Shown here: positions 13,948 through 48,900 of the stretch, in pieces
Numbering within the stretch: the stretch's first letter is position 1
Layout: each line of letters starts with the position of its first letter
Origin: Rugalucina vietnamica
Taxonomy: Eukaryota > Mollusca > Bivalvia > Lucinida > Lucinidae
DNA: 64,000 nucleotides
NCBI GenBank assembly: GCA_964017185.1
Contig: OZ024878.1
Coordinates: 5,022,151 to 5,086,150, forward strand
Reading direction: 5' to 3'
Program-made: the position numbers and the translations under genes
Notes under the pieces: model-generated
What the model was told of the DNA's origin: nothing
The model's input: only the letters and a program-made list of their open reading frames with translations
Database searches by the model: none

Positions 13948-16385
13948 TAGTTATGCACTAGAAGACCCACAGCTAGGAGTTATGCAACCAGAGGACCAAT
14001 GGTCCTGTAAACGCTCACCTGAGATCTGCTTCATATACCAATAAACATATTTGAATATTATGGTATTTAACCCCAGTACAGGGGCAGATGAAGCCCTTGG
14101 GCCATTTTCTTTTTTCAGAATAATCAATATTCTGTCCATTTGCAAATTTCCTGCTGATTTTCCCCTTCAAATAACATTTTAAAAGCAGATGAGCCCCTGG
14201 GGTCCATTTTTTTTTCTTCAGAATCATTAAATTTCAGTCCTACTGCTCATTTCCTGCAAGACTTTCACTTACAATGACATTTTAAAAGTTTTCCCCATTC
14301 AAATGCATTGAAAACCTATGTTGACCTTGCTGTAAAATAGGTCAAGGTCACCACAGGGTCATGTTTTATATATACATTGTAGTACTTGAGTCATCCATAC
14401 TTCATGCAAAGTTTCGTTGAAATCGGTTCACCGGTTCTGGAGAAAAAGATATTTTAAGGGTTTTTACCATATATGGGCATGGCGGCCATCTTGGTCATGT
14501 GATCTGGATTATTTATATACAAATTGGTTCCCACTTCCTATAGATGCTTCATATAAAATTTGGCTTTGATTGGCCAAGTGGTTTCAGAGAAAAAAATCTT
14601 TGAAAAGTGTGTATGGACGACAGACCGGCCAAGGTCAAGAGATGACCTTGACCTAAATTAATCATATACCTTCATCTAATCCATTAGTTGTTTGCATCTA
14701 CCACTTTTCAGCTCTCAGGCTGCAATAGTTTTCATAAAATAGCTAATTTCCACTTTTCCCATTATAAGTCTATGGAAACTTAAAGTTACCATAGCAACCA
14801 GAGTTCTTATCCGACTGGAATAAAAAACACAAATTATGTAGAGGCTACTGTCAGGAACATGTATACAAAGTACAGGATTCATCCACGTGACAGTTTCTGA
14901 GGAGAAGATTTTTGAATGTTTTTTTTTCAAAATTTTGCCCTTTATGGGGCCCCAGCAACCAATCAAAATAAAAGGATTAGGACAAAACTCGCAAGAAATA
15001 TCAAACACTACTCAATAAACATTTCTGCAAAAACAAAATTCAAATGTCTGCAATTTTAGCGGAAAAATAGCCGATTTCCACTTTTCCCATTATAAGTCTA
15101 TGGAAACTTTAAGTTGCCATAGCAACCAGAGTTCTTATCCGCCTGGAATAAAAAACACAAACTATGTAGAGGCCACTGTCAGGAACATGTATACAAAGTA
15201 TAGGCTTCATCCCCTTGACAGTTTCTGAGAAGAAGATTTTTGAGTGTTTTTCAAAATTTTGCCCTATATGAGGCCCCTGCAACCAATCAAAATGAAGGAT
15301 TAGGACAAAAGTCACATGAAACGTAGAGGACTACTCAATAAACATTTCTGCAAAAACAAAATTCAAATATCTCCAACAAGACAGCAAAAACTAGCAATTT
15401 TCACTTTTTTCCATTATAAGTCTATGGGAAGCATAAGTTGCCATAGCAACCAGAGTTCTTATCCGATCAAAACAAAAAACACAATTATTCTTTCCCCCTA
15501 CCTGTAGATGGTGTATGTGAAATATGAGAACAATCAGCCCAGCGGTTTCAGAGAAGAAGATCTTTGAAATTGTGGACGACGACGGACGACGGACGGACGG
15601 ACGCCGGAGCATGGGTATACTATAAGCTCACCTATGAGCCTTCGGCTCAGGTGAGCTAATAAAAGACTAATGGCTAGGAGCTTCGCATTAGTAGACCCAC
15701 AGCTAAGAGTTACGCATTAGAAGATGCAGAGCTAGGAGTTAGGCATTTGAAGACCCACAGCCAGGAGCTATGCATTAGTAGACCCACAGCTAGGAGTTAC
15801 GCATTAGAAGACCCAGAGCTAGCATTAACGCATTAGAAGACCAACAGCTAGGAGTTATGCATTAGAAGACCCAGAGCTATGAGTAACACATTAGAAGACC
15901 CAGAGCTAGGAGTAACACATTAGAAGACCCAGAGCTGGGAGTAACACATTAGAAGACCCAGAGCTAGCAGTAACACATTAGAAGACCCAGAGCTAGGAGT
16001 AACGCATTAGAAGACCCAGAGCTGGGAGTAACACATTAGAAGACCCAGATCTGGGAGTAACACATTAGAAGACCCAGAGCTAGCAGTAACACATTAGAAG
16101 ACCCAGAGCTAGGAGTAACACATTAGAAGACCCAGAGCTAGGAGTAACACATTAGAAGACCCAGAGCTAGGAGTAACACATTAGAAGACCCAGAGCTGGG
16201 AGTAACACATTAGAAGACCCAGAGCTAGCAGTAACACATTAGAAGACCCAGAGCTAGGAGTAACGCATTAGAAGACCCACAGCTATGAGTAACACATTAG
16301 AAGACCCACAGCTAGGAGTTACACATTAGAAGACCCAGACCTAGGAGTAATGCATTAGAAGACCTATGGCTAAGAGTTGTGGGTG
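13948..16385 (+). repeat. 29-bp minisatellite interrupted by a hairpin-ended element
   Basis: The unit is TAACACATTAGAAGACCCAG then AGCTAGGAG. Roughly 25 units lie at 15664-16385, and about one and a half units (ATGCACTAGAAGACCCACAG, CTAGGAGTTATGCA) lie at 13952-13987, on the other side of the 1.67-kb insertion. Variants replace AGCTAGGAG with AGCTGGGAG or AGCTAGCAG in an alternating higher-order pattern near 15900-16260. Confidence 0.93.
13988..15657 (+). mobile_element. Hairpin-ended non-autonomous element (family 6), copy A
   Basis: Starts CCAGAGGACCAATGGTCCTG (a GGACCAATGGTCC hairpin) and ends CTTCGGCTCAGGTGAGCT, preceded by a matching AGCTCACCTATGAGCC. Interior of roughly 450-500-bp repeats: CCTTGCTGTAAAATAGGTCA, GGCATGGCGGCCATCTTGGT, TTTGATTGGCCAAG; then a GGACGACGGACG tract. 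AA at both borders. No terminal inverted repeat and no protein. Helitron-like 3' hairpins come to mind, but the 5' TC and the A/T target rule are not clearly met. Confidence 0.85.
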
Positions 16386-16605
16386 CAGCCATGCTTATTT
16401 CAAGTATGGTTTACAAATCTAAGAATTAAATGAGCTATCACCAAATTACTATCCCCTTTGCAAAATTTTATTCATGCAATAAGCATGCTTGTATTTTCTG
16501 CTTATTCTGGTTTTGTAGGTCTATTTGATTGATAGGTAGCTGTTCCATGCACACCTTTAAGGATCATTGTGGTGTCTGTCTGTTTGTTTTTGCCCAATTG
16601 CCTGG

Positions 16606-16825
16606 CCCCGAGGTTATAAAACTTTTTTCATGCTCAGCTCAGCTGAGACTAAAATTTATCCTGCTCATAAATGTTAAAATGCCAACATTTATGAGCAGGA
16701 TAAATTACAAGTTTTTGAGTTTTGAACCTGAATTTTCCAATAATTTGGACTATTTCAGCATTTATGAGCAGTTGAAATTTCATGCTCAGCTGAGCTGAGC
16801 TTGAAAAAAGTTTTATAACCTCGGG
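16606..16825. mobile_element. MITE-B, complete copy
   Basis: CCCCGAGGTTATAAAACTTT to AGTTTTATAACCTCGGG. The central hairpin is shortened to AATGCCAACATTTATGAGC. Confidence 0.88.
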
Positions 16826-16829
16826 ACCA

Positions 16830-17355
16830 GTACTGAGCTGGGAAACCATGGTTAGTGCAAGTGTGTAGATTAGCTGGTGCATTGCCTTGACAAAATTCTT
16901 TGACATATCTCACAAATCTTTTGTTATTAGTAATCTGTCATTTGATATTTTTCCCTTGATTGTTTTGTTCTTGACATTATACATGTATGCATTGTCTTAA
17001 TATGCCCCATATGTGGGCAGAAAATTTGAAACAAAGGTCTTCTATTTTGTTCGTGAATCTGGTAAAGTAGTCTTATTATTATCTATTGTGACCGATTTAA
17101 ACTAAACCGAAAGAGAAACCAACAAGGAAAATTTAGGGAATGATTCCAACCTAGTTTTGTAAAACCTTATTACCTACTTCAACCGATACAGGAATGTCAG
17201 CAGTAAATACAGTAGCAACATCCTGAGGAAAAAGTGTCCTTTTGTAAACTGCAAAAACCAAGTGACAGATCAGCTGCACATAACCAAATCCTCACACCAG
17301 AAATATGCTTTGTTTATGAATTGGACACACTACAAAATGAGCTATCGTGCCAGGT
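16830..17355. other. Unassigned interval
   Basis: No gene, SINE or MITE words recognised. Confidence 0.45.
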
Positions 17356-17358
17356 CAA

Positions 17359-17606
17359 CATTATGAAAACTTGCCCATGCTGTATAATATAAGACTTTTT
17401 CAACTGTAAAAATGAAAATTACATCAGAAAATTTTTGATAATTATGCTCAAAACAAAGATTGTGAGTACACGTTAGAACTGGTACCCACAATCTACGTTT
17501 TGGATCAAAAATAAGAAAAATAGGCATACCCCTGAAAACCCCGGCTTTACACTATAAGGTTGGGTATAAGGGGGGTATACATTACAGGGACATGTTTTCC
17601 TGATCA
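17359..17606 (-). mobile_element. Family 4 palindromic repeat, reverse copy
   Basis: CATTATGAAAACTTGCCCAT at the left to GGGACATGTTTTCCTGAT at the right, with CACAATCTACGTTTTGGATC inside. Confidence 0.78.
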
Positions 17607-17760
17607 ACATGGGATACAATCTAATAGACTAAGATTATGTTGAATACATTTTAATAGTATAAATCAATATCTTTGGAACAATCATATAAAAACTGTCATT
17701 TATACATCATAAATTGCATTTCAATTGAACTGACCATCAGTTTTAATATCAACAAACGAT

Positions 17761-17983
17761 TGAGCCGCCGCATGGAAAAACCAACAATCTGCATAGGCAA
17801 AAACAAAGGTGCAGATCAGCTTCGCAGTTACTGCGAAGCTGATCAGCGCCTTTGTTTTCGCTACACAGTCTACTTTCTAAAACCAAAATTTCCAGCCTCT
17901 AACCATCTTCTGTGGCTGTACAGCCCAGTTTGTGTCGGACCTGGTCGAAACCCCAATTGCTGGTTTTCTCATGCACAGGCTCA
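17761..17983 (+). mobile_element. MITE-A, AT target duplication
   Basis: TGAGCCGCCGCATGGAAAAA to CTCATGCACAGGCTCA. Perfect stem CAGCTTCGCAG/CTGCGAAGCTG. Confidence 0.9.
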
Positions 17984-18356
17984 ATGAACAGCAACAACTT
18001 TCACAATACAAACAGCGCCAAAGCTTCACATAGCAAAAAGCACTATACGATGTTCGTTGAATGATATTTTATTCATTTTAAAGACATAGTTTCATGTTTT
18101 CTAATTTCTATGGGTAGTACGGTAAAAGAAAAATTACAGTATACTTATGTCTCAGATTTACCATTACGATTTAAAATGAAGCCTCCTGGTACAGTGGATA
18201 AGTCACAACTTGTAAACCAGGGGTCACAGGTTCAATCCCAGTGTTTTTCCAGTCTGTCTGATGAGAATTGAACAAGTAATATTATGATCAACAATGAGTA
18301 TTATTGCGATGTCAATCTGTCATGTTCTAAGCAAATCAGTACACCTGGACCTTTTT
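17984..18356. other. Mostly unassigned; tRNA-like fragment at 18178-18262
   Basis: GCCTCCTGGTACAGTGGATA then CACAGGTTCAATCCCAGTG resemble A and B boxes of a tRNA-derived SINE head. No tail follows. Confidence 0.45.
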
Positions 18357-18528
18357 ATAACACGGTTCGTTACAACACAGTTTGGGATATAACACTGATC
18401 ATTGTTGAACCCCAATGGGACTATTTTTGCTATATGTCTATACATTTTACTCTCGTTATAACACGGATTGGATAGCTAACACGGATATTGGCTTGGACCC
18501 CAGCAATAGTGTTATAATGAGGTTGAGA
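18357..18528 (+). mobile_element. pogo/Tigger-like MITE, diverged copy
   Basis: TATAACACGGTTCGTTACAA to AGTGTTATAATGAGGTTGAG. The left terminus is lost. Confidence 0.65.
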
Positions 18529-18734
18529 TGCATTTGCAGCCTGAATAGGTGTCACTTTGCATGAAATGTTATCTTTTGTTAAAATGTTAATTATATTTAA
18601 TACTACAAATATAGTTTCTGTGTCAACAAAATATGACACTATAGAAAAGCTTCTAATTTGTTTCTAACAAAAGCCTGTGGTTGTAAAAAAAATACAACTT
18701 TCACAGACATAAAAATCTAGTTAACTTTCCAGGT

Positions 18735-18966
18735 AAGGCCTAGTTTCTACAGACAATGTTTCTTTGGCGAAGATTATTTGTCACAGAAACTTTGGCAATG
18801 AGTTTGCGTTCACACAAAGCAAAAATTACTTATATTACTTAGCTCTCTCACCTTTGTCACAGATATTTGACAATGAAACTTCGCCACAGAATTGAGTTTA
18901 CACGAGCACATTTTTCTGCGATAAACCTACTTTGTCAAAGAAAAACTGTCCATGAAAACTAGGCTT
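18735..18966. repeat. Possible TIR element with GCCTAGTTT ends
   Basis: TAAGGCCTAGTTTCTACAGACA at the left is answered by TGTCCATGAAAACTAGGCTTA at the right. Between them TTTCTTTGGCGA and TTTGTCAAAGAAA also pair. Single copy in the window. Confidence 0.5.
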
Positions 18967-19212
18967 AAAGAATCAAATTACATGAGAAGTGACATAATTA
19001 ACATTTATAATGCCAAATTTTATGCATAGCACCTCCATTGACTAGACACTAAAAATGATTAGAAAAATGAAGAGGGATCTATATTTCACAGGGGACGTGG
19101 TCATTGGTTTTAGTGGCCACTTTTTTCTTTGTGTTTGTTTTTGAAATCTTTGATTAAAAGTTGCTCAATATAACCCAAAACATTATGTAGAAGCTGCACG
19201 CTTACATCAGAT

Positions 19213-19448
19213 TAGCCGTGACACGAGAAAACCAGTCTTCAGGGTTTCCGAACAGGTCTGATACAAACTAATCTGTACAGTCACAGAAGCAGGCTAGAAG
19301 CTTGAGATTTCGGATTTAAGAAGAAGAGAGAATGTACTGTCCGTGTAGTGAAAACAAAGGCGCTGATCAGCTTCGCAGTTACTGCGAAGCTGATCTGCGC
19401 CTTTGTTTTCACATAGGCAAAAATCCTGTTTTCTCATGATGCAGCTCA
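19213..19448 (-). mobile_element. MITE-A
   Basis: AGCCGTGACACGAGAAAACC to TTCTCATGATGCAGCTCA. Perfect stem CAGCTTCGCAGTTACTGCGA. Confidence 0.88.
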
Positions 19449-19600
19449 GATGTTAGTAAAACATGTATCATATTCTGCATCTGGGCATAAAGTGCAAAAA
19501 AAAAAGATAATACCTCTGTTCACCATTTACAGTCTCATTATGTGTCTTATATTTCAATTTTATCTTCATTGTCATACCTGTCCTCCTGAATAAAAGTAAA

Positions 19601-19830
19601 TGAGCCCTGCATTAGAAAACCAACAATTTGCATATACGAAAACAAAGATGCACATCAGCTGTGCAGTAACGGTGCAGTAAATGTGCCTTTGATTTCGCTA
19701 CATGGATCGTACAATTATTCTTCTACTTATATCCAAAGTTTCAAGCTTCTATCTTTCTTCTGTGACAGGCCGGTTTGTGTGGGACTTAAATCAGAAACCC
19801 AGATGGTTGGTTTTCTCTTGCGAAGGCTCA
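19601..19830 (+). mobile_element. MITE-A, AA target duplication
   Basis: TGAGCCCTGCATTAGAAAAC to CTTGCGAAGGCTCA. The hairpin is degenerate (GTGCAGTAACGGTGCAGTAA). Confidence 0.82.
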
Positions 19831-19916
19831 AATGTAGTTCATCCAGGTCCAGAATCACAAGACTTCATTTTCAAGTACTTGACCCTAATAGGACAACAAA
19901 AAATGTTTACAATATG

Positions 19917-20124
19917 GGTTGCAACGCGAGAAAATGGGTCTTTTCAACAGGTCTGACACAAACCGGCCTGTACAATCTCAGAAAAAGGCAAGAAGCTTGA
20001 AATTTGGGAGTTGGGAAGAAGAGGAATGGTACTGTCCATGTAATGAAAAGGAAGGTGCTGATCAGCTGATCTGCGCCTTTGTTTTCGCATAGGCAATAAT
20101 CCTGTTTTCTCACTATGTGGCTCA
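19917..20124 (-). mobile_element. MITE-A, short hairpin
   Basis: The hairpin top is deleted: GGTGCTGATCAGCTGATCTG joins the two arms directly. Confidence 0.82.
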
Positions 20125-20158
20125 TATGGCAATGAGTCATCTTTGGGTACAGATTTAG

Positions 20159-20385
20159 TGAGCCGCGACGAGAGAAAACCAGTCTTCGGGGTTTCCGACC
20201 AGGTCTCACATAAACCGACCTATACAGCCACAGAAGATGGCTAGAAGCTTGAAATTTCAGATTGAGGGTTGTACTATTCGTGTAGAGAAAACAAAGGCGC
20301 TGATCAACTTTGCAGTTACTGTGAAGCTGATCTGCGCCTTTGTTTTCGCACAAGCAAAAATCTGGTTTTCTCATGACGGGGCTCT
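20159..20385 (-). mobile_element. MITE-A, AG target duplication
   Basis: AG on both sides. TGAGCCGCGACGAGAGAAAA to TCTCATGACGGGGCTCT. The long arm is shortened after TTTCAGATTGAGGG. Confidence 0.88.
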
Positions 20386-20513
20386 AGTAAATACACTACC
20401 TTTGAATGAACCTCAAGGGAGACAATATGATTATATCAGAAGATGCAGCATTTTGACAAGTTTTGATTATTTCCCCTTATGATCCTTTTTTTTCACAGGA
20501 AAAATGAATTGCA

Positions 20514-20703
20514 GTTCAACCTCATTATAACATGTCTCACTATAGTGTGGTTTTCAATATAACACAGTCATGTTGTGGTTCCAAAAATGATTATCTTGCT
20601 GTATGCCTATAGTAAACAACCTCATTATAACATGGTTTCACTTATAACACGGTCAGTTTCCATGGACCTCAAAGACGGCGTTATAATGAGGTTGACTGGT
20701 ACT
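20514..20703 (+). mobile_element. pogo/Tigger-like MITE, complete copy
   Basis: GCAGTTCAACCTCATTATAA to GTTATAATGAGGTTGACTGGTA. All internal words present. Confidence 0.85.
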
Positions 20704-20929
20704 GTGTTTGTTTTACCGTATATGGCTTGTTAAGAATCTGTCATTACTAGTGTGTACATTTATACATCCCACTAAACAATTTTTCGAGTAATTCCCAGAC
20801 TTATTCTGGGCCCACATAAAATACGTTTTCATGCAGAATTGATCTTAATTCCCTAAATATTAAAATGTTCATGTTCCTCTGTTGACTGTCCTTGTTGAGT
20901 TCCAAGTCTCAGCTACAGCTGAAGTCATA

Positions 20930-21145
20930 TGAGCCACGACACGAGAAAACCGGTCTTCGGAATTTCCGACCTGGTCCGACACAAACCGGCCTGTACAGTC
21001 TCAGAAGATGGCTTGTACTATCCAAGTAGCGATGGATTGTACTATCCAAGTAGCAAAAACAAAGGCGCTGATCAGCTGTGCAGTTACTGATCTGCGCCTT
21101 TGTTTTCGCATAGGCAAAAATACGGTTTTCACACAACGTGGCTCA
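20930..21145 (-). mobile_element. MITE-A, TA target duplication
   Basis: The long arm carries an internal duplication of TTGTACTATCCAAGTAGC (21014-21057) replacing the usual TTCAAGCTTCTAGCC segment. Confidence 0.88.
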
Positions 21146-21149
21146 TATG

Positions 21150-21498
21150 GTGACCAGAACTCGATTCAAAGTTTCACCTGAATGACTGGAAAAGCTAAAA
21201 ATTGACTTCTGGTTTACATGATACATTTATGTGGCTTTAAGATTACATCAAAGAAGCTTTTCTATATAGAATATGTACACAATCTGTGAGGCTTAACATG
21301 TGCCGATAACAATAGTAACAGAAACTTATGTACATTTATACAAAACTTTAACAATTAAAAATGAACATACAACAAGTCATAACATTTAATCACAAATTGG
21401 ATGCAAACTTTTTGAAATGCTTATAACACAGAGTTATGATTCTATGAGCTATACATGTTCAAAATAGATCTTTCTTGCCCAACTTTTCTTCTTTCAAA
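21150..21498. other. Unassigned interval
   Basis: A+T-rich. No gene or known repeat recognised. Confidence 0.45.
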
Positions 21499-21735
21499 TG
21501 AGCCTGTGCATGAGAAAACCAACAATTTGGGTTTCAGACCAGGTCCGACACAAACCAGGCTGTACAGTCACAGAAGCAGGCTAGAAGCTTGAAATTTCGA
21601 ATTTAAGAAGAAGAGAGATTGTGCTATCCGTGTAGCGAAAACAAAGGCACTGATCAGCTTCGCGGTCACCGCGAAGCTGATCTGCGGCTTTGTTTTCGCT
21701 TATGCAAATTGTTGGTTTTCTCATGCACAGGCTCA
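21499..21735 (-). mobile_element. MITE-A, AA target duplication
   Basis: Outer ends TGAGCCTGTGCATGAGAAAA and TTTTCTCATGCACAGGCTCA are perfect inverts (20 bp). Hairpin top CTTCGCGGTCACCGCGAAG is perfect. Confidence 0.93.
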
Positions 21736-21767
21736 AATGCTTTCTTTAGATCTTAAAAGAACACATT

Positions 21768-21980
21768 TGAGCCTCTGCATCAGAAAAGAACAAACCACAA
21801 AAATACAGCCGATTAGCGCCTTCGTTTTCGCTCCAAAGACAATACTATATCTATTCTTTCCAAGTCTGAAATTTTAAGCTTGAAGTTATTTTGTTTGGCT
21901 GTACATACCGGTTTGTGTCAATCTTGGTCAGAAACCCAGATTGTTGAGGGTTGTTGTTTTTTTTTTCACGCAAAGGCTCA
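21768..21980 (+). mobile_element. MITE-A, degraded, TT target duplication
   Basis: The left half of the hairpin is deleted: AAATACAGCCGATTAGCGCC joins directly to the long arm. Confidence 0.75.
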
Positions 21981-22104
21981 TTTCATATTTTGGTACGGCC
22001 TGGTAGGCAACCCCTAAGTATGGGACTCAATGTCTTGGCTATTACCAAACAACTGGAATCTATTTGCAAGCCAAGCGAGCTAGTTTCATCAAGCAACCAT
22101 CAAA

Positions 22105-22322
22105 TGAGCCGCGACGTGAGAAAACCGGTCTTCGGGGTTTCCGACCAGGTCCGACACAAACCAACCTGTACCAGCTCAGAAAAGAGCTAGAAGCTTGAAA
22201 TTCCGGATTTAAGTAGAAGAGGAATTGTACTATCCGAGTAGCGAAAACAAAGGCGCTGATCAGCTGATCTGCGCCTTTGTTTTCGCATAGGCAATAATCC
22301 CGTTTTCTCACGATGCGGCTCA
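22105..22322 (-). mobile_element. MITE-A
   Basis: TGAGCCGCGACGTGAGAAAA to TTTTCTCACGATGCGGCTCA. The hairpin top is deleted to GCTGATCAGCTGATCTGC. Confidence 0.9.
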
Positions 22323-22598
22323 ATTTCTACTGGTTACTGTTTGGGCATTATGTAATGATGCGATGACTGTACATACACAAATGCGACTAAATTAGCAACA
22401 AAAATCAACTATCAAAAGATTGCCAAATCAACTGCGAATGCAAACATTTACAATTTTATACCAATATATGCATATTTGAAGGTAATAAGGCATTAAGCTA
22501 CATCCCACTTAAGTACAGTTTCTTCATTATGGTCAGATTTTGACCTTAAATGGATCAAAGGTCAGAGAGTCCATGAAGTAGCATGTGAAAGCAAAATC

Positions 22599-22836: not shown

Positions 22837-22973
22837 CCCAGGTTGAAATAAGAAAAGTTTTTTTCTGTAATGCTTAAGCATTTTTACTGTCACAAGCTCA
22901 ATATCCTCTCACATGCTACTAGGTACGTAGACTCTGATCTTTGATCCGCCAGAGGTCAAACTTGAACTATAAA

Positions 22974-23486: not shown

Positions 23487-23489
23487 CAA

Positions 23490-30900: not shown

Positions 30901-33900
30901 CGCCTCGTTTCAAAGTGTGTCGTAAAGCGGTACAGACTTGTAAGCGTAATAACATACCAGAATGCAGATCTAGTTCTGATCCGGATTTGGCTATCGTTAC
31001 CAATGACTCTATCACGTCTGTCTGTTTTTGTAGTTTATCTAGTGCGTAGATCTCACGACATTTCAGTGGTCCGAACGTACCCAAGTTCTGTACGAAATAG
31101 AAAAACAAATATGAGCCATGATGCAAGAAAACCGGTCTTCGGGATTTCTGACCTGGTCTGACACAAACCAGCCTGTACAGTCTCACAGGAAAGATAGAAT
31201 CTTGAAATTTTGAGTAGAGGTAGAGGAGAAATTGTACTATCTGAGCAGTGAAAACAAAGGCGCTGATCAGCTGTGCAGTCACTGGCTGTACAGCTGATCT
31301 GCGTCTTTGTTTTCGCATAGGCCAAAATCCGTTTTTCTCATGGCGCGGCTCATATGGTTCTGAAATTGATTTTGGCCGAAATCAGCATTTGCATGGGAGA
31401 TAATCCATGACAACACAATAAACTTACTGATAACTAGGTACATGTTATTGTTTCAGATGAATATGACTTATACATGCCAATCTCTTCTTGGAAGCATGAA
31501 TTCTAATTGAAAATCGATCAAGAGAAATTTTGCAAAACTTTTTTCTTTCTTAAATGGGGTACAGGAGGAATCCAAGTTACAAACCAAAAAGTATTTGTAT
31601 CAACTATATCAATGCTTTGAAATGCACAGCTGATCCGCCCCTTTATTTTCGCTCCATAGCTAGTATAATGTCTCTTCTCATTAAATCAGAAATTTCATGC
31701 TTCTAGCCGGCTTCTGTGACTGTAAAACACGGTTTATGTCGGACCTGGTCGGAAACCCAAATTGCTGGTTTTCTCATGTCAGTGCACAGGGCTAACTTAA
31801 ACTTACATCGAGCAATCTTTCACAGTAATTCAGATGATACATCAGACTTTGGTCCACCTGTTCGTTCCCCGTTGTGGGTGGTACCGGGCTCGAGCCCAGA
31901 CTGTCCCCCAGCTGTGTGTCCTCGCTCAGCCGCTGGGCCAAACTCTCAATCCCAGAATCCCCCGTCTTGGCCGTCGACTCGGGGCTGCATAACAGATCGT
32001 CAAATGTTGGCTGACTTTTGGGGCTGTAAATAATGGGTTTATATGGGAAAGGCAAGCTATAACATAGGCAAAGGAAGAATATGTATGAAGAAAATAGGAG
32101 CACAAAGCAGGATGATTGAATCTAAAGCAAAACTGAACAAAATCTTTAAAAGAAAAGAACTTATTCAATAATTTAAAAGCTTTAGCAGCTGTAGTAAATG
32201 TTGACAATAAATCAAATGTCATGTTATAAGCAAGCATTCACTGTTACTCTTGAAAGTTTAAATATTGAGAACTGGTTACCTGCTAAAGCTATGTAGCATT
32301 GTCAAAACAAGACAATTATAATTGAGCCTGTGTGTGAGAAAACCAACAATTTTCGGTTCCGACCACATCCAACACAAGCCAGCCTGTAGTCACAGAAGCA
32401 GGCCGGAAGCTTGAAATTTCGGATTTAAGAAGAAGAGGAATTGTACTGTCTGTATAGCGAAAACAAAGGCCCTGATCAGGGCTTTGTTTTTGCCTATATA
32501 GACTGTTGGTTTTCCTATGCGGCGGCTCAGTTATCATGTTCTTGTTGTTCAACATCCCAGTTAACAATTTTTCAGGGATGTTGGGATGGAGCCTACATTT
32601 CATTGGTACTTTACCAGTTCTAACATTATCAGCTAAACAATCATACTCTTTAATTTAGAACTGTCCTTTTTCCGGCTCAAGAGAAAATATGTATATTGCA
32701 TGGGAGTGTTTTGGTAATGTTATAGATAGAGTTTTTTGGGGTTTTTTTTGATTCAGTTTTACGTCCCTTTTAAGCTTTTTCACTCATATCGAGACGAATC
32801 AATCGGTAGGTGGGGCGAAAACCGGAGTACCCGGGGAAAAACCACCAGACACACCCGCAAGCAGAACTTGACTTGTCCCACATGTGACTCGTGCCCCGAG
32901 CGAGGCGCAAACCAACAGCGGTGAGGTGATCGAATGATTAAGAGCACTGAAGTCAGCGACCTTAACCACTCAGCCACGGGGGCCGCCTATAGATAGAGTG
33001 ATCATCAAGTACACACATCACTGTCGATGAAGACATGCCCATAAGATAAACAGAGATTTTTTTAGCTTTAAAAATTGAAAGTTTTCAGCTGAAAAACGTT
33101 GATATTTTTCTTATTTTTGCTCGAAACCCACAATCTATGGTTTGGAGCAAAAATAAGAACCAGAGGACCAATGGTCCTGTAAACGCTCACCTGAGACCTG
33201 AGATATACACATGTACCAATAAACTTGTTAGACTAGAATGGTACAATGCATGTATATAACCCCAGGGCAGGGTCAGAATAACTCCTGGAGTCAATGTCTT
33301 TTTCAAATCATAAAAATTCAGTCCACTTGCCAGTTAACTGCAATTTTTGTCCTTCAAATGACATTTTAACAATTTTCTCCATTCAAATGCATGGGTGATC
33401 TAAAATGACCTTGCCGTGAAATAGGTCAAGGTCATCCCAGTGTCATGATTTATATAAATTTTGTAGATCTCCATTCCTTAATGCTTCATGCCAAGTTTCA
33501 AAATCATAGGCCTTCTGGTTCTGAAGAAGAAGATTTTTAAAATTGTTTGCTATTTATAGCCATGGCCGCCATCTTGGTCATGTGACCATGACCATTTATA
33601 TAAACTTTCATTTCCTCTTCCTAAGGATGCTCCACATAAAGTTTGGCTTTGATTGGCTAAGCAGTTTCTGAGAACCAGAGGACCATTGGTCCTGAGAACG
33701 CTCACCTGAAGCCTGATCTTGGAGTATTAAGTCATAATGAAATGACCTTGACCTTGAATACTCACACACCTTTATTGACTTCATAAGTTGTCTGCATCTG
33801 CAAAGTTTCAGGTCTCAGGCTGCAATAGTTTCCAAACCCAGTGATTTCTGAGAAAACCATAATTTTAATTTTGATATTTAAATGACCTTGGGCCAAAGTC

Positions 33901-36900
33901 AAGACATGACCTTGGCCTTCATTTATTACTTACCTTCATTGACTCCATTAGTTGTCTGCATCTAGAAACTTTCAGGTCTCAGGCTGCAACAGTTTGTTTT
34001 CGCCTTTTCCCATGTGAAAGCCTATGTTTCCAAAATTGACCTTGCCGTAAAATAGGTCAAGGTCATCATAGGGTCATCATTTCAACAAACTATGATAGGC
34101 TGGAGTCCCAAATGCTACATACCAAGTTTCATGAAAATTGGCCTGCCGGTTCTGGAGAAGATTTTTGAAAGGTTTTTACCATATATGGGCGTGGCGGCCA
34201 TCTTGGTCATGTGACCTGGATTTCGCGATCAAACTTTCGTCTCCCCTACCCATGGATGCTCCACATAAAATTTCACTTTGATTTGCCAAGCAGTTTCAGA
34301 GAAGATCTTTGAAAACTGTGTATGGACAACAAACTGGCCAAGGTCAAGAGATGACCTTGACCTATATTAATCACATACCTTCATCTACTCCATTAGTTGT
34401 TTGCATCTACCACTTTTCAGGCCTCAGGCTGCAATAGTTTTCAAAAAATCCATAGTTTTCACTTCTTCCTATGTAAAAGCCTATGTTTCCAAATTTGACC
34501 TTGCCGTAAAATAATTCAAGGTCATCCAAGGGTCATCATTTTACCAAACTATGATGGGCTGAGGTCCCCGATGCTACATACAAAGTTTCGTGGAAATCGG
34601 CCCACCGGTTCTGGAGAAGAAGATTTTTGAGTGTTTTTTACCATATGAGTGGCGGCCATCTTGGTCATGTGACCTGGATTTCGTGATCAAACTTTCGTCT
34701 CCCCTACCCATGGATGCTCCACATAAAATTTCACTTTGATTGGCCAAGCGGTTTCAGAGAAGAAGATCTTTGAAAAGTGTGTATGGACAACAGACTGGCC
34801 AAGGTCAAGAGATGACCTTGACCTATATTAATCACACACCTTCATCTACTCCATTAGTTGTTTGCATCTACCACTTTTCAGGCCTCAGGCTGCAATAGTT
34901 TTCAAAAAATCCATAGTTTTCACTTTTTCCTATGTAAAAGCCTATGTTTCCAAATTTGACCTTGCCGTAAAATAGGTCAAGGTCATCCAAGGGTCATCAT
35001 TTTATCAAACTATGATGGGCTGAAGTCCCCGATGCTACATACCAAGTTTCGTGGAAATCGACCCACCGGTTCTGGAGAAGAAGATTTTTGAAGTGTTTTT
35101 ACCATATATGGGCGTGGCGGCCATCTTGGTCATGTGACCCGGATTTCGCGATCAAACTTCAGTTCCCCCTACCCATGGATGCTCCACATAAAATTTCACT
35201 TTGATTGGCCAAGCGGTTTCAGAGAAGAAGATCTTTGAAATTGTGGACGACGGACAACGGACGGACGACGGACGGACGGACGACGGACGGACGGACGCCG
35301 GATCATGGCCATCCTATAAGCTCACCTTGTGAGCCTTCGGCTCAGGTGAGCTAAAAAGCTGTTTGAATATTATGGTCATCTACATGTATATAGCTCCAGG
35401 GCAGGGGCAGACAACCCCTGGGCCTAAAATATTTTCATAAGCATAAATCTTCTGTCCATTTGCTCATTCCTAGCAAGTTTTCTGCCATTACATTACATTT
35501 TCCTATTTTTTCCCATTCCAATGCATGGGAGACCTAAGTTGACCTTGTCATAAAATAGGTCAAGGTCATCCCAGGGTCATGATTTATATCAACTTTGTAG
35601 AGCTCCATTCCCAGATGCTTCACACAAAGTTTCAAAATCATAGGCCTTCTGGTTCTGAAGAAGAAGATTTTTTAAACGTTTTTGCTTTTTATAGCCATGG
35701 CGGCCATCTTGGTCATGTGACCTTGACCATTTATATAAACTTTCATTCCCCCTTCCCAAGGATGCTCCACATGAAGTTTGGCTTTGATTGGCCTAGCGGT
35801 TTCAGAGAAGAAGATGTTTGAATATTATGGTCATATACATGTATATAGCCCCGGGGTAGGGGCAGACAAAACCCCAGGGGCTAACATTTTCCATTAACAT
35901 TAATCTTCTGTCCATTTGCGTATTCCCAGTAAGTTTTACCCATTAAATAGCATTTTACCATTTTTTCCCATTCAAATGCATTGGCGACCTAAGTTGACCT
36001 TGCCGTAAAATAGGTCAAGGTCATCCTAGGGTCATGATTTATATAAACTATGATGGGCCCGCATCCCCGATGCTACATACGAAGTTTCGTGGAAATCGGC
36101 CCACTGGTTCTGGAGAAGAAGATTTTTTAAAGGTTTTTGCTATTTATAGCCATGTTGGCCATCTTGGTCATGTGACCTGGACCATTTATATAAACTTTCG
36201 TTCCCCCTTCCTAAGGATGCTCCACATGAAGTTTGGCTTTGATTGGCCAAGCGGTTTCAGAGGAGAAGATCTTTGAAATTGTGAACGACGGACGACGGAC
36301 GGACGACGGACGGACGCTGGAGCATGAGCATACCATAAGCTCACCTGTGAGCCTTCGGCTCAGGTGAGCTAAAAATAGGTATACCCCTGCATACCCCAGT
36401 TTTGCTGTATAAAAGTGGGGTTTAAGGAGGTATACATTTCATGGACATGTTTTCCTGAAGAGTTGTCTTACCCTGTTTTTGTTGTAGGTGACTGTGGGTC
36501 CACCGCTGATCCCTCCTCTGTATCAAGGAAATCAAAAGCTTCCAGAGCACTCTCTATAGATACACTGATACTAGACGATCGAGAGCTACTCCGTGAATGC
36601 TTCTGAAAGGGGAAAGAAAAACTGCTGACTCCATTTCAAGATTCTGTATCAGCTAATCAGCAGCTGGTTTTGGCCACATTTTATTTGAGTTTTGACGCGA
36701 GGAAACCGGTCTTCGGGAGTTCCGACCCGGTCTGACACAAAATCGACCTGTACAGTCACAGAAACAGGCTAGAAGCTTGAAATTTCGGATTTAAGAAGAA
36801 GAGAAATTGTACTATCCGTGTAGCGAAAACAAAGGCGCTGATCAGCTTCGCAGTTACTGCGAAGCTGATCTGCCCTTTTGTTTTTGCATAGGCAAAAATC

Positions 36901-39900: not shown

Positions 39901-42900
39901 TGACATGCCTGTATTATATGAGTCGCGACGCGAGAAAATCAGGGTTTTGCCTATGCGAAAACAAAAACAAAGATGCAGATCAGCTGTGCAGTTACTGCGC
40001 AGCTGATCAGCGCCTTTGTTTTTGCTATTGGGATAGTACAATCCCTCGTCTTCCTAAATCTGAATTTTCAAGCTTCTAACCCTTTTCCTTTGACTGTACA
40101 ATTCGGTTTGTATCGGACCTGGTCAGAAACCCCGAAGATGGTCCTCTCGTGTCGTGGCTCATTTCGAAAACCGCATTATAATGAGGTTGAAGTGTACATG
40201 AAATATTATGGAAGAAACTGAGAGATCAGTACACATTAATGTGTGTTTGTTCCTTTTGAGATTTAATGTCCGCGTCAACAATTTTTCAGTCATGTCGGGA
40301 CGGAACACATAATTTGTGGTTGATAAAGTTCGACATACTTCCATGTTATAATAATGCTGAGCTTGAGGGATCCGTTGACGTTAATGCTGACGGTCATTAA
40401 CTGAGGGTTGGCGGAGAACAAGTCCTTTATCTCACAACTCTTCTGGCCCAGAACAACTGACTTGAATGCTCGCAACTCCACACCCTGCAATGACATTACA
40501 TGTAATCTATAATTCCTTATCATCAAATTTCCTCAAGAATGTTCTGAAATATAGCAGCACTTATGGTGCACATTTTTTAAAGACATTTGAAGAAAAACTA
40601 TAAACATCTAAAAAAAAGATACAAGTAGGCATTGATCAGAAAAAGGCGCAATCAGAAAGAAATTTGCACTCCAAAAACCAAGATGGAAAAAAATAAATTG
40701 ACAATTAGGTACTTATACTAAGAAAACATATCGTATGCCGAGTGAGCAGCTATTGCCCAATAAGCGGCCACTCAGTTCATAAGCCTATTTTACAATGTTA
40801 GATGATTATCGGTTTATTGAGATGGTGTTAAACAGTCCCATCAACAGCTAAGGTAAAATGAAAATTGGGAATTCAAGATAAGGCATAACATGGTTGTCAT
40901 GATTAAATCAATTGAACCTTGTTGACCAATCAAAAAATTAGTTTAAATAAAACTTATCTATGTCTTAATGTTTTATTATGTTGTCTATTTTTGTTAAATT
41001 TCCTATTTATTGATGAAGTCTCCCTCTCCATCTCTCACCTTTATATTAATGATGTCTCCCACAACAGCTTTGAAGACAAATTCTGGGATCTCCCATTTCT
41101 GGTTCCCACCTTTCTCCACTCTGCCCTTAGTTTTCCATTTCTGGGTCCCGTGTCGCACTGTCACTTCAAATACATCTCCAGGACAGAGTCGGGCAAACCC
41201 AGCCATTCCTGAAAATATTATGTATATGTAGTACTATGTTTGTTTGTTTTAATGATTTACATCCACAGCTTATAACAAAGGTCATGTCGGTACAGACAAT
41301 TATCCTAGCAACAGTGAACCTCCAACACACAGGTAACCAGGACTTAGTACAGATTTCTTTCACAACTGACAGATGTTGTTATTGAACCTGCATAAGACAA
41401 AGAGTGACAGTGGAAACTATTTTATGACCATATCTTTATGAAAGAAATGCACCAATCACTGATTCACTTTGTTACCAGTCAGGCACACTACAGATTAAGC
41501 GAACATGTAGTCATAGTACATGTACATGTACCAGATACAGTTCAACCTCATTATAACACATCTCATTATAGTGCGGTTTTCAATATAACACGGTCATGTC
41601 ATGGCTCCCAAATTAATTATTTTGCTATATGCCTTTTGTAAATAACCTCATTATAACATGGTTCACCTATAACACGGTCTGTTTCCATGGAAACCAAAGA
41701 TAGCGTTATAATGAGGTTGACCTGTATGTGGCGAGAGGCAATAATTGGGGGAAAAATCCATTGATGGCCATTGATTACGAATTGTTTTAAAAATGAGCCT
41801 CCTCATGGGAAATCCAACAATCTGCATAGGCGAAAACAAAGACGCAGATCAGCTTTCAGCGCCTTTGTTTTCGCTACTCGGATATAGTATAATTCCTCTT
41901 CTACTTAAATCCGAAATTTCAAGCTTCTAGCTCTTTTCTGTGCTTGTACAGTTCGGTTTGTGTCGAACCTGTTCAAAAACCACATTGTTGGTTTTTCCAC
42001 AAGGTGGCTCAAATTTAAGATGAAAAGATGTGAATCAAATACCTTTGAGTTTGCAGTTAAATGTCCCCATCATGTTTTCTAGCTGGGCCTCTATCTGGCA
42101 CATAGTCTGAGTACACTCCTTATACCCGTACTTCACGTTGCTAAGGGTGTGGCGCTGGTTGCCAGGGGAGGTAACGTAGGCTTGATGCATCGTCCGAACA
42201 CCTAGAAACAAAGTTAAGTTTACAATACAGATATCGCTCTAAAACATAAGATTTTACCGTGATTTATTTTTACATAACTCACAATTTCATGTAATGCTAA
42301 CATTTTCTTTCTCGAATTTTACTTCACCAGATTTTACATGCATTTGAAATAAATGACCTATGGAAATAAAGAATTGAAGTAAAGACTTTTAAAACAGACA
42401 TCAAAAACTACAAATTTTTCAAAGCAAGACTGATTAAATATAGAATTCTGCCTAGCATAGAAACTACCACGATAACATATCCTTTTAATGTATACCCCCT
42501 TATACTCCACTTTTATATAGCAAAACTGGGGTATGCAGGGGTATACATAGACTAGCATCAGTCTCAGAGATAAAGAAATCCCACTACTATAAACACTGTC
42601 AGATGCTTGAACCTATTAATTGATAAACCCTGCTAAAATCTCTGAAATTTTAGCATTTAGAGATTTTTGTTATCACTATCAGTAATCTAAATTTCATACT
42701 TCGTATTAAAAACTTTTTTTTTTATTATTATTTCTTGGACGTTTGCTAGTCTAGGGTATACATGGTTTTCTTTGTTTTGCTCCAAAACATAGATTGTGGG
42801 TATTCCGTGGAACTGCCTTGGCAAAGCTGTTCTAACCTGTACCCACGAACTATGTTTTTTGGCAAAAATAAGGAGAATATCAAAAATTTTCTACTGAAAT

Positions 42901-45900
42901 TTTATTTTTAAAACTTCATGACTATATTGCATGTTTTCGTTGACTAAGTTGCATATGAGCATTGTCACGGGAAAAAATGGCATCAGGATTTTTGGACAAT
43001 TGAGACACAGATCATAACACATTTAGCAGAATTGCTTTGAGCACAGAATCTAGCCAGTTCTCAAACTAAACTATTTACTGTAAATTCGGAACTTTTTGCG
43101 AGAACTTGAAATTTGCGGGGTTTTTTGCCTTTGCATTTTTTTTTAAATTCAGTTTTACGTCCCTTTCAAGATTATTTCAGCTCATATGAGATGGGCCAAT
43201 CAGTAGGTGGGCAAAAATGGGAGAACCTCAAGAAAAACCACCTGACACACCCGCAAGCAAACTTCTCACATGTGGCCAGTGCGGGGTTCGAACCCACACC
43301 AGACACAGCGGTGAGATGATCGAGTGATTAAGAAACAGCGTTCTTAACTGTTCGGCCACGGGGGACGCTACTTTGCAAAATTAAAGCTTCTCACTAATAC
43401 AGAATCTTTATATACCATAAAGACTACAAGAACAACACAGTCGCAAATTCAAGACTTCACGAATAATAAAAAAGAAAATTCGCGAAATAAAATTTCTGAA
43501 TTTACAGTAAGTTAAAAGTAAGCAATGATCAGGAACTGTTTCTGTGTATGGTATGGCACATATTCAAGCAAGTTTAGAGAGTTATTGAGATAATAATCAT
43601 ATGAGCCGCCTCCTGAGAAAACCAACAATCTGCAAATGTACTTAAGTTTACATATGTACTTTGCAAAGCTGATCAGCACCTTTGTTTTCACTACACAGAT
43701 AGTACAATCCCTCTTCTTAAATTTAAAATTTCAAGCCTCTAGCCTACTTCTCAGACAGTATAGGCTGGTTTGTGTTGGACCTGTTCGAAAACCACTTTGT
43801 TGGTTTTCTCATGATGCGGCTCATATATATGTTGGGGAGTGGGGTGGCTCAGTGGTAGAGCATCAGACTCCACAACAAAAAGTGAGGGTTCAAACTCTAC
43901 TGCTATTGAGCATGTCAGCTTTAGTCCCAATAGAACTTGTCAATGGTGGCTCCATACCAACATGACTGAAATATTGTTGACTGGATGTTAAGCAATGACA
44001 CAAATGAGCCGCGACGCGAGAAAACCGGTCTTCGGGGTTTCCGACCAGGTCAGACACAAACCGGCCTGTACAAGCTCAGAAAAGAGCTAGAAGCTTGAAA
44101 TTTCGGATTTAAGTAGAAGAGGAATTGTACTATCCGAGTAGCGAAAACAAAGGCGCTGATCAGCTTCACGGTTACCACAAAGCTGATCTGCGCCTTTGTT
44201 TTCGCATAGGCAAAAATCCGATTTTCTCACGATGCGGCTCAAATAATACACAATATAATATTAGGTACTGTACAGTAATATGTTAGTTATTATACATCAA
44301 TTTTACTAATACAAGGAACTGTAACTCGTTATTACATGGTTCGTTATAGGGTGGTGCATGATAGAGAGTATACATTCAAATAAGCAGCATCTTGTGAAAA
44401 CCTGCATCTTTTCATTTAAAGGTGTGGATAAGGTACTCCTCTCAACTTATCAGCACATTTGCTTTTCATACATACATTGTACAATGGCTTCACTTCCTGT
44501 ATCAACAGTGTCCAGCAAGTTAACATCTTTTGTACTTGTACAACCAAAGACAAAGGCAAGTTTTCATGCGATGGTGTTCAGTTCAAACAGTGGTTTGAAC
44601 CCCAACATACATGTATGTGCAGTTAAATACTGGTTTATTGAAAACCAACTTATTTTTGAGTCCATTTATTTTCATAAAGACAGAAATTTTAGAACTGACG
44701 TATTTAATATGCTAATAGCAGTATTTAATTTTCAGTAAATACAAAACTAGAGATTTGTTTTTCATTCAGTTTTATGTCCCCTTCAAGATTATTTCAGATC
44801 ATTTGAGATGGGCCAATCAGTAGGAGGTGCAAAAACAGGTGAACCCAAGAAAACTACCAGGCACACCCGCGAGCAGAACTTGGCTTGCCTCACGTGCCCC
44901 ATGTGGGGCTCAGACCCACACCAGACACAAGGGTAAGAAAAACTAGACTATGCGAGGGCAAAGTAAAGTATCCCTCTGTTTGATTCCCACAAATGTTCAT
45001 TTAAAAATTTCATGTGTGCTGTTTGAGATATTTTTAAAGCTATCTAAGGATTAATAGCAAAAAGGTGGCTAAATGAAACTATGTGCAGCTAGGGTGTTTA
45101 ACTGTGGGTGGTATAAGTGCCTCTAATTTACCCATGTACTCTGAAAGCGAAGAAACTCTAGATTAATATTTTATCAAACACTAGATTTCAGTTAGCATAC
45201 AGTCATCCGTAAAACATGTCCTTAAAATATATACACGTACCATTTACACCCCACTTTTATATAGTGAAAATGGGGTTTACAGGGGTATAAATGTCTTTCT
45301 TATTTTTGCTCCAACATAGATTGTGGGTACTCATCAGAACCGCCTCCACCAGGCAGTTCTAACATGTACCCACAATTTATGTTTTGAGCAATATTCAATG
45401 AATTTTTCAATGTTTACAGCTGAAAAAAAAAAAAATCACTGATATGGCTTGGGCAAGTTTTCGTAATGGCCACTTAAGTTCTATTTTTCTCATAACAGAT
45501 GACAAATGCATGTACATGTAACAGTTTTACTGGTCTCAATATTCCAGTTTCTTTTGAATGTAACAGCAAGTGGGCAAATAATTATACCAAATTCAGATTT
45601 TTAAAATAAAGAGAAAGAGAAAATATAAAATCTAACAAAATGCACCAAAAATGAAATATAGCTCAAACTACATAGACAGAAAACTGCATACCTCATGCAA
45701 AAATAACAAAAATGTTTAAGAACAAAAATGAAGCAAGCAAAACAAAAACATGCACATATCCGCATGTCTTTGACAAAAAATTTGAGCCATGACTCGAGAA
45801 AAACGGTCTTCCGGAATTCCGACTAGGTCCGACACAAACCGGCCTATACATCCACAGAAGAAAGCTAGAATCTTGAAATTTTTGGTATACCTATAGGAGG

Positions 45901-48900
45901 AATTGTACTATCCATAGAGGGAAAACAAAGGTGCTGATAAGCTGCACAGTTACTGCACAGCTGATCTGCAACATTGTTTTTGCATAGGCAAATATCTGTT
46001 TTTCTCATGATGTAGCTCAACTATTCTGGAGTATCAGAAGAAACCCTACCTTCTCTCATCTTTTGCTGTAGGAGATAATTGTCATGCAGCTCATCTAACT
46101 GAAAAACAAAAGCAAACATGTAAACATTGTTACTCAAAGCAATTCCAGTTTTTTTTAGCTTTTACCAAAATGCCCTTGATGTTAAGTTTCACAAATATTA
46201 ACAGGTACACACATGTTAGAACATGGCACTAATATGGTAAGATTTAGCAAAAGCTTATTGCTTATTTCTAGTTTCTATTTCTCATGGTTTATACCCTGTC
46301 CGGACATTAAAAGGGCTGTAGAACAGGCCCAGATTTGCAGCTTAGTGAGAGGAATAAACATGGATATAAATGAGCCGCCCCATGGGAAAACCAACAATCT
46401 GCATTGGCAAAAACAAAGGCGCAGATCAGCTTCGCAGTAACTGCAAAGCTGATCAGCGCCTTTGTTTTCGCTACTCGGTTAGTACAAGTTCCTCTTCTAC
46501 TTAACTTCAAAATTTCAAGCTTCTAGCCTGTTTCTGGAGCTGTACAGGCCGGTTTGTGTCAGACCTGTTCGGAAACCACAATGTTGGTTTTCCCACGATG
46601 TGGCTCAAATTATGATCAACTTTCTGAAGATGGCTCCCGTGGTTAAGAGCGCTGATATTTCCTTACCGCACTTAAACATTTGATCATCTCACCACTGTGT
46701 CTGGTGTGGGTTCGAGCCCCACATGGAGCAACATATGAGGCAAGTAAAGATCTTATATGAGCCGAAATTATCTTGAAATGGACGTTAAACAGAATAAAAA
46801 ACCAGAGGACCAATGGTCCTGTAAACGCTCACCTGAGATCTGCTGCATATACCAATAAACATGTATGAATATTATGGTATTTTATTCCAGTGCAGGGGCA
46901 GATGAAGCCCTTGGGCCATTTTCTTTTTTCTGAATCTTCAATATTCTGTCCATTTGCCAATTTCCTGCTGGCTTTTCCCTTCAAATGACATTTTAACAGT
47001 TTTCCCAATTCAAATGCATAGGCAACCCATGTTGACCTTGCCATAAACTTGGTCAAGGTCATCACAGGGTCCTGATTTATATATACATTAAAGTACTTTA
47101 GCCATCGATGCTTCATGCCAAGTTTCCTTGAAATCAGTCTATTGGTTTCAGAGAAGAAGGTTTTTGATGGGTTTTTACCATATATGGGCATGGCGGCCAT
47201 CTTTGTCATGTGACCTAGATTATCTATATACACATTGATTCACCCATTCTATAGATGCTTCACAAAAAATTAGGCTTTGATTGGCCAAGCGGTTTCAGAG
47301 GAGAAGACGTTTGAATATTATGGAAATATACATGTATATTGCCGCGGGGTGGGGGCACATGAGCCCCTGGGGTCCAATTTTTTTCAGAATCATTAATATT
47401 CAGTCCTACTTCCCATTTCCTGCAAGACTTTCACTTTAAATTACATTTTAAAAGTTTTCCCCATTCCAATGCATTGGTGACCTATGTTGACCTTGCCGTA
47501 AAATAGGTCAAGGTCATCACAGGGTCATGATTTATATATACATTGTAGTGCTTGAGCCATCAATGCTTCATGCCAAGTTTTGTTGAAATCGGTCCACCGG
47601 TTCTGGAGAAGAAGATTTTTGAAGGGTTTTTACCATATATGGGCATGGCGGCCATCTTGGTCATGTGACCTGGATTATTTATATACACATTGGTTCCCCC
47701 TTCCCATAGATGCTTCATGTAAAATTTGGCTTTGATTGGCCAAGCGGTTTCAGAGAAGAAGATGTTTGAATATTATGATAATATACATGTATATTGCCCC
47801 GGGGTGGGGGCGGATGAGCCCCTGGTGCCCAATTTTTTTCAGAATCATTAATATTCAGTCCTACTGCTCATTTTCTGCAAGATTTTTCCTTTAAATGACA
47901 ATTTAACAATTTTTCCCATTCAAATGCAAAGGCGACCTATGTTGACCTTGCCGTAAAATAGGTCAAGGTCACCGCAAGGTCATGATTTATATACACATTG
48001 TAGTGCTTGAGTCATCGATGCTTCATGCCAAGTTTGGTTGAAATCGGTCCAGTGGTTCCGGAGAAGAAGATTTTTGAAGGGTTTTTACCATATATGGGCA
48101 TGGCGGCCATCTTGGTCATGTGACCTGGATTATTTATATACACATTGGTTCCCCCTTCCCATAGATGCTTCATGTAAAATTTGGCTTTGATTGGCCAAGC
48201 GGTTTCAGAGAAGAAGATCTTTGAAAACTGTGGACGACGGACGGACGGACGGACGGACGACGGACGACGGACGGACGGACGACGGAGCATGGGTATACTA
48301 TAAGCTCACCTTGTGAGCCTGACGGCTCAGGTGAGCTAAAAATTGGCCAAATTACAGCTTCAAATGCAAGATTTTTGTTCTTCTAGAGTTCATCCAAAGA
48401 AAGATTTGCTTTCTACTGTTTTTTTTACCTTTGACAAGTGGAATTCTAATCTCTTGAGGTACCTCTCCGCTGACTTGATTTGCTGGAAGACAGAAACAAT
48501 ATGCTCAAACTCATAATTGAGCCGTGACACGAGAAATCCGGTCTTCGGGGTTTCCGACCAGGTCTGACACAAACCGACCTGTACAGTCACAGAAGCTAGA
48601 AGCTTAAATAAGAGCTGTCGCAGGACAGCGTGCTCGACTGCTTCTGACCTTTGTCAAACATTAGGCCAAACCCGACCAGTAACCTAAAACATTTTGCTTA
48701 TACATCTTTTTGCCTTGATGCAATAAGGCAAAATCACTGAACCATTAAAGTTAACTATAACTACCTAAGATTAAAGGTCTCACTCATATTGTGAAAGAAG
48801 TGTGTTCATATACCAACTGAGTGCAAAGATACAATGCAAAAATCACTGAACCGTGAAATAAGCTCACACTGACCTATAAGTATTTCAGGGTCAAAGGTAA

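What the first reader, a model, noticed from the sequence alone, without database searches (positions are those of the whole stretch)
13988..48337. A hairpin-ended, TIR-less repeat that inserts at AA, into a minisatellite, a palindromic repeat, a SINE tail and itself
Copy A splits the 29-bp array; copy B splits a family 4 repeat; copy C sits inside B; copy D sits in a SINE-1 tail. All start CCAGAGGACC, end GGTGAGCT, and meet AA on both sides. Four independent host contexts define the same borders. The structure (end hairpins, internal 450-bp units, a GGAC-rich tract) matches no TIR class and only loosely resembles Helitrons.
Basis: partly seen in the sequence, partly recalled or inferred. Interest (0 to 1): 0.75.

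Follow-up and report, generated by a model that had tools for sequence, protein, structure and literature searches.

The report
Non-coding Helentron with its coding partner
The repeat is a very abundant non-coding Helentron, a known kind of rolling-circle jumping gene; the same genome carries protein-coding elements with matching ends that probably move it.

Summary
The four copies are real and their borders hold. Read on the minus strand they are non-autonomous Helentrons (HINEs, the DINE-1/Pearl kind), not an unclassifiable repeat. The left border is exact. The right border should move 2 nt: empty sites show that the element adds CCAG...AGCT plus AA (7 of 8 testable insertions). The target on the element strand is TTW^T. 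The genome holds 11,150 exact 36-nt 3' ends and 18,068 exact 23-nt 5' ends. A protein-coding partner exists: a 15.3-kb element with matching ends and an unbroken 2738-aa frame (Rep, PIF1 helicase, C-terminal endonuclease-like stretch). It is a new family of a known kind; mobilisation by that protein is inferred. The extra is a well-resolved target site, which a Helentron paper left open.

The parts
13988..15659 (-).
   Evidence: Ends; empty site at +2; the 18 A-type copies among the 20 fetched loci that have both ends align to it at 92-98%, 13 of them end to end
33160..36372 (-). HINE copy B, diverged subfamily, interrupted by copy C
   Evidence: empty site at +2, 93% over 74 nt to L051
33675..35354 (-). 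HINE copy C nested in a ~455-bp unit of B; own ~461-bp units (TRF 33996-35240)
   Evidence: empty site at +2, 90% gapless over 80 nt to B's own later unit at 35770-35849
46802..48339 (-). HINE copy D at the tail of a tRNA-SINE-like repeat
   Evidence: no spanning empty site at +2 among held sequences, so its right end is set by analogy with A, B and C
15645..15656 (-). 5' subTIR of A, itself palindromic (GCTCA-CC-TGAGC)
   Evidence: Sequence checked; 5' hairpin z -6.0, -6.2, -7.1 in A, C, D (B not folded)
15625..15633 (-). inverted repeat that closes the 5' hairpin of A
15573..15603 (-).
   Evidence: Sequence; similar tracts of C, B and D found by TRF
14736..15484 (-). central tandem units of A (328 bp, 2.3 copies)
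   Evidence: TRF
14013..14023 (-). 3' subTIR of A (CTCAGGTGAGC), 25 nt from the 3' terminus
   Evidence: part of the 36-mer with 11,150 exact genome copies
13992..14006 (-). 3' palindrome of A (AGGACC-ATT-GGTCCT), 4 nt from the 3' terminus CTGG|T
   Evidence: folds weakly on its own (z -0.7 for A)

Best explanation
The repeats are HINEs: non-autonomous Helentrons, rolling-circle DNA transposons, lying on the minus strand. They have a 5' terminus TT-AGCTCACCTGAGC (hairpin), a GTCC microsatellite, central tandem arrays, a 3' subterminal repeat and a palindrome ending CTGG. Shown: the anatomy, the borders, insertion into TTW^T on the element strand without target duplication, the very high copy number, and a coding Helentron in the same genome with matching ends. 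Inferred: the coding element's Rep recognises the shared ends and nicks in a run of Ts, perhaps helped by the C-terminal endonuclease-like domain; PIF1 helicase peels off a single strand; the 3' palindrome marks its end; and the strand joins at a TTW^T target. The tandem units probably grow by slippage or repeated rolling-circle copying.
For: Anatomy agrees with HINE definitions seen as passages of PMC4067079 and PMC7492417: subTIR 3 nt from the 5' end counting the TT (published: about 2-4), palindrome near the 3' end, GTCC microsatellite, central repeats, T-rich target, no TSD. Empty sites: all 22 two-ended copies were searched against held sequence, 8 had a spanning paralogous site, and in 7 of these the gapless best junction is 2 nt after AGCT. 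A 2-bp TSD is contradicted by 5 of 22 copies. Genome-wide: 11,150 exact 36-nt 3' ends and 18,068 exact 23-nt 5' ends, reversed-pattern controls 0; T follows 98.9% of the former, and TTWTT precedes 14,496 of 18,068 (80%) of the latter. Coding partner 1: 15,301 bp, first 36 nt of the 5' end identical to copy B, GTC/GTCC microsatellite, 165-bp repeats, unbroken 2738-aa frame with Helitron_like_N (1.2e-27), PIF1 (5.4e-18) and a C-terminal endonuclease-like region with NAR, GDFN and SDH motifs. Coding partner 2 (L035/L062): 3' end 35/36 identical to copies B and D.
Against: The endonuclease matches of partner 1 are below Pfam's cut-offs (0.0016 and 0.0037); related frames L063 and L064 pass clearly (5.6e-12, 7.2e-11). 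The 3' palindrome is hardly more stable than shuffled sequence when folded as DNA (49, 18 and 21 of 200 shuffles fold as well in A, C and D). Partner 1's 3' end lacks 3 nt and has 2 changes against the HINE end (88.6% over 35 aligned nt). Partner 2's own 5' end was not pinned, and its frame is broken near the C-terminus. One of the 8 testable insertions, L056, does not favour +2 (best score at +1 with gaps, gapless only at +3). The 3' terminal CTGG also fits the Helitron CTRR rule (recalled). Mobilisation is not shown.
Confidence: 0.95

Rival explanations
1. A cut-and-paste element (foldback or MITE) with subterminal inverted repeats and a 2-bp AA target duplication.
For: Filled sites gain 2 A beyond CCAG...AGCT in 7 of 8 testable cases, which a 2-bp AA TSD would also give; 17 of 22 copies fit it. 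DINE-1-like elements have been annotated as MITEs before (PMC4067079, passage).
Against: 5 of 22 copies have TA or GA on the left but AA on the right. The two inverted repeats lie at different distances from the ends (3 nt and 25 nt). RepHel elements with such ends exist. No transposase partner was searched for.
Confidence: 0.03
2. A canonical Helitron (5' TC, 3' hairpin plus CTRR, insertion between A and T).
For: The 3' terminus CTGG (CTAG in partner 1) fits CTRR, and a palindrome lies upstream.
Against: Insertion is T^T, not A^T, in most copies; the 5' terminus is TT-AGCT, not TC; subTIRs and a terminal 5' hairpin are present; partner frames carry a C-terminal endonuclease region. The TC and CTRR rules are recalled.
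Confidence: 0.02

Closest known systems
HINE families and DINE-1 (non-autonomous Helentrons; PMC4067079)
   Same: SubTIRs (palindromic ones in mite and mosquito families), 3' palindrome, T-rich target, no TSD, microsatellite or tandem repeats, RepHel-endonuclease partner with shared ends
   Different: Other sequence; 3' subTIR 25-36 nt from the end (published about 38-60) and palindrome 4 nt from it (published about 8-35); the Ts at the 5' end look fixed at two here rather than variable. Sequences were not compared directly
Cg_HINE elements of the Pacific oyster (PMC7492417)
   Same: GTCC/GTCY microsatellite, 11-12 bp subTIR with a complementary IR, satellite-like central arrays, TT target, no TSD
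   Different: Central units of 328-486 bp seen here, against Cg170-related and other repeats there; a coding partner is identified here. Sequences were not compared directly
Pearl elements CvE and MgE of bivalves (as described in passages of PMC7492417)
   Same: HINE-class, with short arrays of central repeats
   Different: Pearl central repeats about 160 bp; sequences not compared

Membership tests
Helentron / HINE | Subterminal inverted repeats near both ends | tested here: met
   GCTCACCTGAG / CTCAGGTGAGC in A, B, D; C has one change in the 3' copy
Helentron / HINE | Palindrome near the 3' end | tested here: met
   AGGACC-NNN-GGTCCT, 4 nt from the end in all four window copies; weak as a DNA fold
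Helentron / HINE | Insertion within T-T, no target duplication | tested here: met
   (7 of 8)
Helentron / HINE | Partner encoding Rep and PIF1-type helicase, with matching ends | tested here: met
   15.3-kb element with both ends of this type and a 2738-aa frame
Helentron / HINE | Endonuclease fused to the C-terminus of the RepHel protein | tested here: inconclusive
   Partner 1 below Pfam cut-off but with NAR, GDFN and SDH motifs; the two other RepHel families scanned there pass
Helentron / HINE | HINE form is non-coding | tested here: met
   Longest stop-to-stop frame 147 aa in 22 copies
Helentron / HINE | Published rule: same family if at least 11 bp of subTIR are identical; same subfamily if at least 80% identical over the last 60 bp | tested here: inconclusive
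   11-bp subTIR identical to partner 1, so same family; similarity was found only over about the last 35-50 nt, so the subfamily rule is not shown
Helentron / HINE | Rolling-circle, single-stranded intermediate | not testable with these tools
   Needs an assay
Canonical Helitron | Insertion between A and T | tested here: not met
   T follows the 3' end in 98.9% of 11,150; the host base before the 5' TT is T in 17, A in 4 and G in 1 of 22 (read on the element strand)
Canonical Helitron | 3' CTRR (recalled) | tested here: met
   CTGG in the HINEs, CTAG in partner 1
TIR transposon / MITE | Terminal inverted repeats at both tips with a TSD | tested here: not met
   Inverted repeats lie asymmetrically; no consistent TSD

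The most novel reading that the evidence does not exclude
This Helentron family has a fixed rather than variable border: exactly two Ts carried at the 5' terminus and a defined target word TTW^T, so that its endonuclease or Rep reads a specific 4-5 base site. That would answer the question, left open for Helentrons, of how the flanking Ts are divided between element and host.
Probability: 0.4. Interest if true: 0.45.

Novelty: new member of a known kind. Interest (0 to 1): 0.35.

Why it matters
More than ten thousand identical ends, nested insertions and unbroken partner frames make this genome a good natural system for Helentrons, whose flanking Ts have been hard to assign (PMC4067079 section 6). 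Because insertions often lie in repeats (8 of 22 had a paralogous empty site even in the little sequence held), the junction can be read to within one base. It also shows how such elements spread tandem 300-490 bp units through a genome.

Tried and rejected
A 2-bp AA target duplication: judged unlikely because 5 of 22 copies break it. Borders as truncations: rejected. The right end of copy D (window 48226-48337) as a DNA query: no hit, probably skipped as simple repeat or very common words. Partner ends in the 30 RepHel loci with 1.5 kb on each side: none at the mismatch limits used; the elements are too long. L063, L064 and L065 (RepHel families L025, L020, L011): no such 3' end of their own in the 8 kb read downstream; the complete ends in L064 pair up as two nested HINEs, and L065 has one diverged 5'-like end whose other end was not seen. 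An RPA gene beside the frame: none recognised among the short open frames listed, by eye only. Partner 2's 5' end: the candidate found probably belongs to a diverged C-type HINE with a decayed 3' end of its own. A count of the 36-mer followed by TT did not complete. PMC10294476, on bivalve transposons, was looked at for Helentron passages only and gave nothing specific.
Full report
Observation. The four copies and their ends are present at the stated coordinates. A lies in the 29-bp minisatellite, C inside a ~455-bp unit of B, B in a repeat with other window copies, and D at the tail of a tRNA-SINE-like repeat.

Anatomy. On the minus strand each copy reads: (TT)AGCTCACCTGAGCC..., a palindromic subTIR that folds with its inverted repeat into a stable terminal hairpin (z -6.0, -6.2 and -7.1 for A, C and D, 0 of 200 shuffles as stable in each; B not folded); a GTCC/GTC microsatellite; central tandem units; then the 3' subTIR CTCAGGTGAGC (one change in C), a spacer, the palindrome AGGACC-NNN-GGTCCT and CTGG. 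The 3' palindrome is a perfect inverted repeat but weak as an isolated DNA fold (z -0.7 to -1.3; 49, 18 and 21 of 200 shuffles fold as well). The copies are of several subfamilies: A-type copies align to A at 92-98%, while B, C and D are alike in their ends but only about 70-92% alike in blocks inside. No long frame is present (longest stop-to-stop 147 aa in 22 copies).

Borders and target. The set is biased towards A-type copies, since only 40 of 2,203 first-look candidates were scored. With the window they gave 26 left ends, 22 of them paired with a right end; the 4 left out have no right end found within the stretch. In one search the right flank of B was by mistake taken from C; searches have the 22 right and give the same counts. 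On the plus strand, A precedes the left end in 26 of 26; the base before that is A in 20 of 26; AGCT is followed by A, A, A17/T4/C1, A21/T1, A, then by no preference. Joined flanks of the 22 were compared with all held sequence: 8 had a spanning paralogous site. These 8 and D were tested at offsets 0 to 5. In 7 (A, B, C, L042, L053, L055, L057) the best junction is gapless two bases after AGCT; for A this leaves out a slightly higher score at +1 that is its left flank matching itself. A few lesser gapless matches exist at other offsets (in B, C, L042, L057). L056 is ambiguous and D has no such site. So the insertion adds CCAG...AGCTAA. A 2-bp duplication would need equal dinucleotides on both sides; 5 of 22 fail, 17 fit. 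One base of ambiguity (A on either side) remains. On the element strand the target is TTW^T.

Genome-wide counts. The exact 36-nt 3' end occurs 5,609 + 5,541 = 11,150 times, its reversed control 0 times; with a T following, 11,023 times (98.9%). The exact 23-nt 5' stretch occurs 18,068 times, 14,496 of them (80%) preceded by TTWTT. The 39 other scored A-type copies are 94-99% identical to A over the 413 bp, so that subfamily looks fairly young; this is an inference from the best-scoring copies. Nesting in its own kind is seen in C-in-B and in L042, which lies in a copy of its own family.

Coding partner. A search for Helitron_like_N scored 150 of 409 candidates; all 150 were above the cut-off, 146 without stops in the match, many in frames of 1,500-3,500 aa; 14 control genomes gave none. 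For L036 I read 22 kb around the gene in contiguous pieces. It holds a 15,301-bp element: 5' end CCTTTTT-AGCTCACCTGAGCCGAAGGCTCACAGGTGAGCTTATAG, identical to copy B over the first 36 nt from AGCT; GTC/GTCC microsatellite; 165-bp repeats; an unbroken 2738-aa frame; and 3' end CTCAGGTGAGC-TACAGGACCAATGGTCCTCTAG|T. Its protein has DUF6570, the Rep domain, a PIF1 helicase and a C-terminal endonuclease-like stretch that is below Pfam's cut-offs but has NAR, GDFN and SDH motifs; in solved structures the helicase part matches PIF1 and, weakly, Helraiser (1e-06). Frames of the two other RepHel families scanned at that end pass the endonuclease cut-off. A related copy (L035/L062; 85.8% over 5.8 kb) ends CTCAGGTGAGCGTTTGCAGGACCATTGGTCCTCTGG|TTTTT, 35/36 identical to B and D. 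Between its gene and that end the only 5'-subTIR-like word has 2 mismatches and no hairpin partner next to it, so I take the end as the coding element's own. Its frame is broken near the C-terminus, and its 5' side is occupied by what looks like an old C-type HINE (79% to C over 1.6 kb), so its own 5' end is not fixed.

Comparison. These features match Helentrons and HINEs as described in PMC4067079 (passages, sections 6 and 16) and PMC7492417 (passages). PMC4067079 reports that it is unclear how the flanking Ts are divided and proposes indiscriminate cleavage between Ts. In the present family the division looks fixed: two Ts on the 5' end, target TTW^T, in 7 of 8 testable insertions. The canonical Helitron target rule is not met; the 3' CTRR is (recalled).

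Mechanism. Shown: matching ends, target, absence of duplication, and a coding partner. Inferred: Rep nicking at the T run, helicase peeling, palindrome-guided termination and strand transfer into TTW^T.

Verdict. A new, very abundant HINE family of a known kind, with its likely autonomous Helentron. Whether this family already bears a name in a repeat database was not tested.

Noticed in passing
window 48612-50851: A second HINE-like family after copy D, with other ends: a GCTGTC-GCAG-GACAGC palindrome and GCTCGACTGC subTIR on the left, a hairpin and GCAGTCAAGCT followed by AA on the right, 128-bp tandem units inside. A copy about 90% alike is inserted in L058.
   Followed up: partly
L044 1096-3424; L051 1798-3267; L049 (reverse strand) 1242-1880: Long insertions inside A-type HINE copies, with internal tandem repeats; L044 and L051 inserts have inverted stretches near their ends. 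Probably other repeat-carrying elements.
   Followed up: no
L009-L038: Five pairs of RepHel copies 99% or more identical (L011/L012, L016/L018, L026/L027, L031/L032, L036/L037), many with long frames, suggesting recent activity of several lineages.
   Followed up: partly
L036, L011, L020, L025, L031: A DUF6570 domain (PF20209) precedes the Rep domain in five of the six RepHel frames scanned; not found in L009.
   Followed up: no
window 5823-6875 and 7601-9629: A nearly perfect 22-bp array (48 copies, 98% matches) and a long 27/54-bp array.
   Followed up: no
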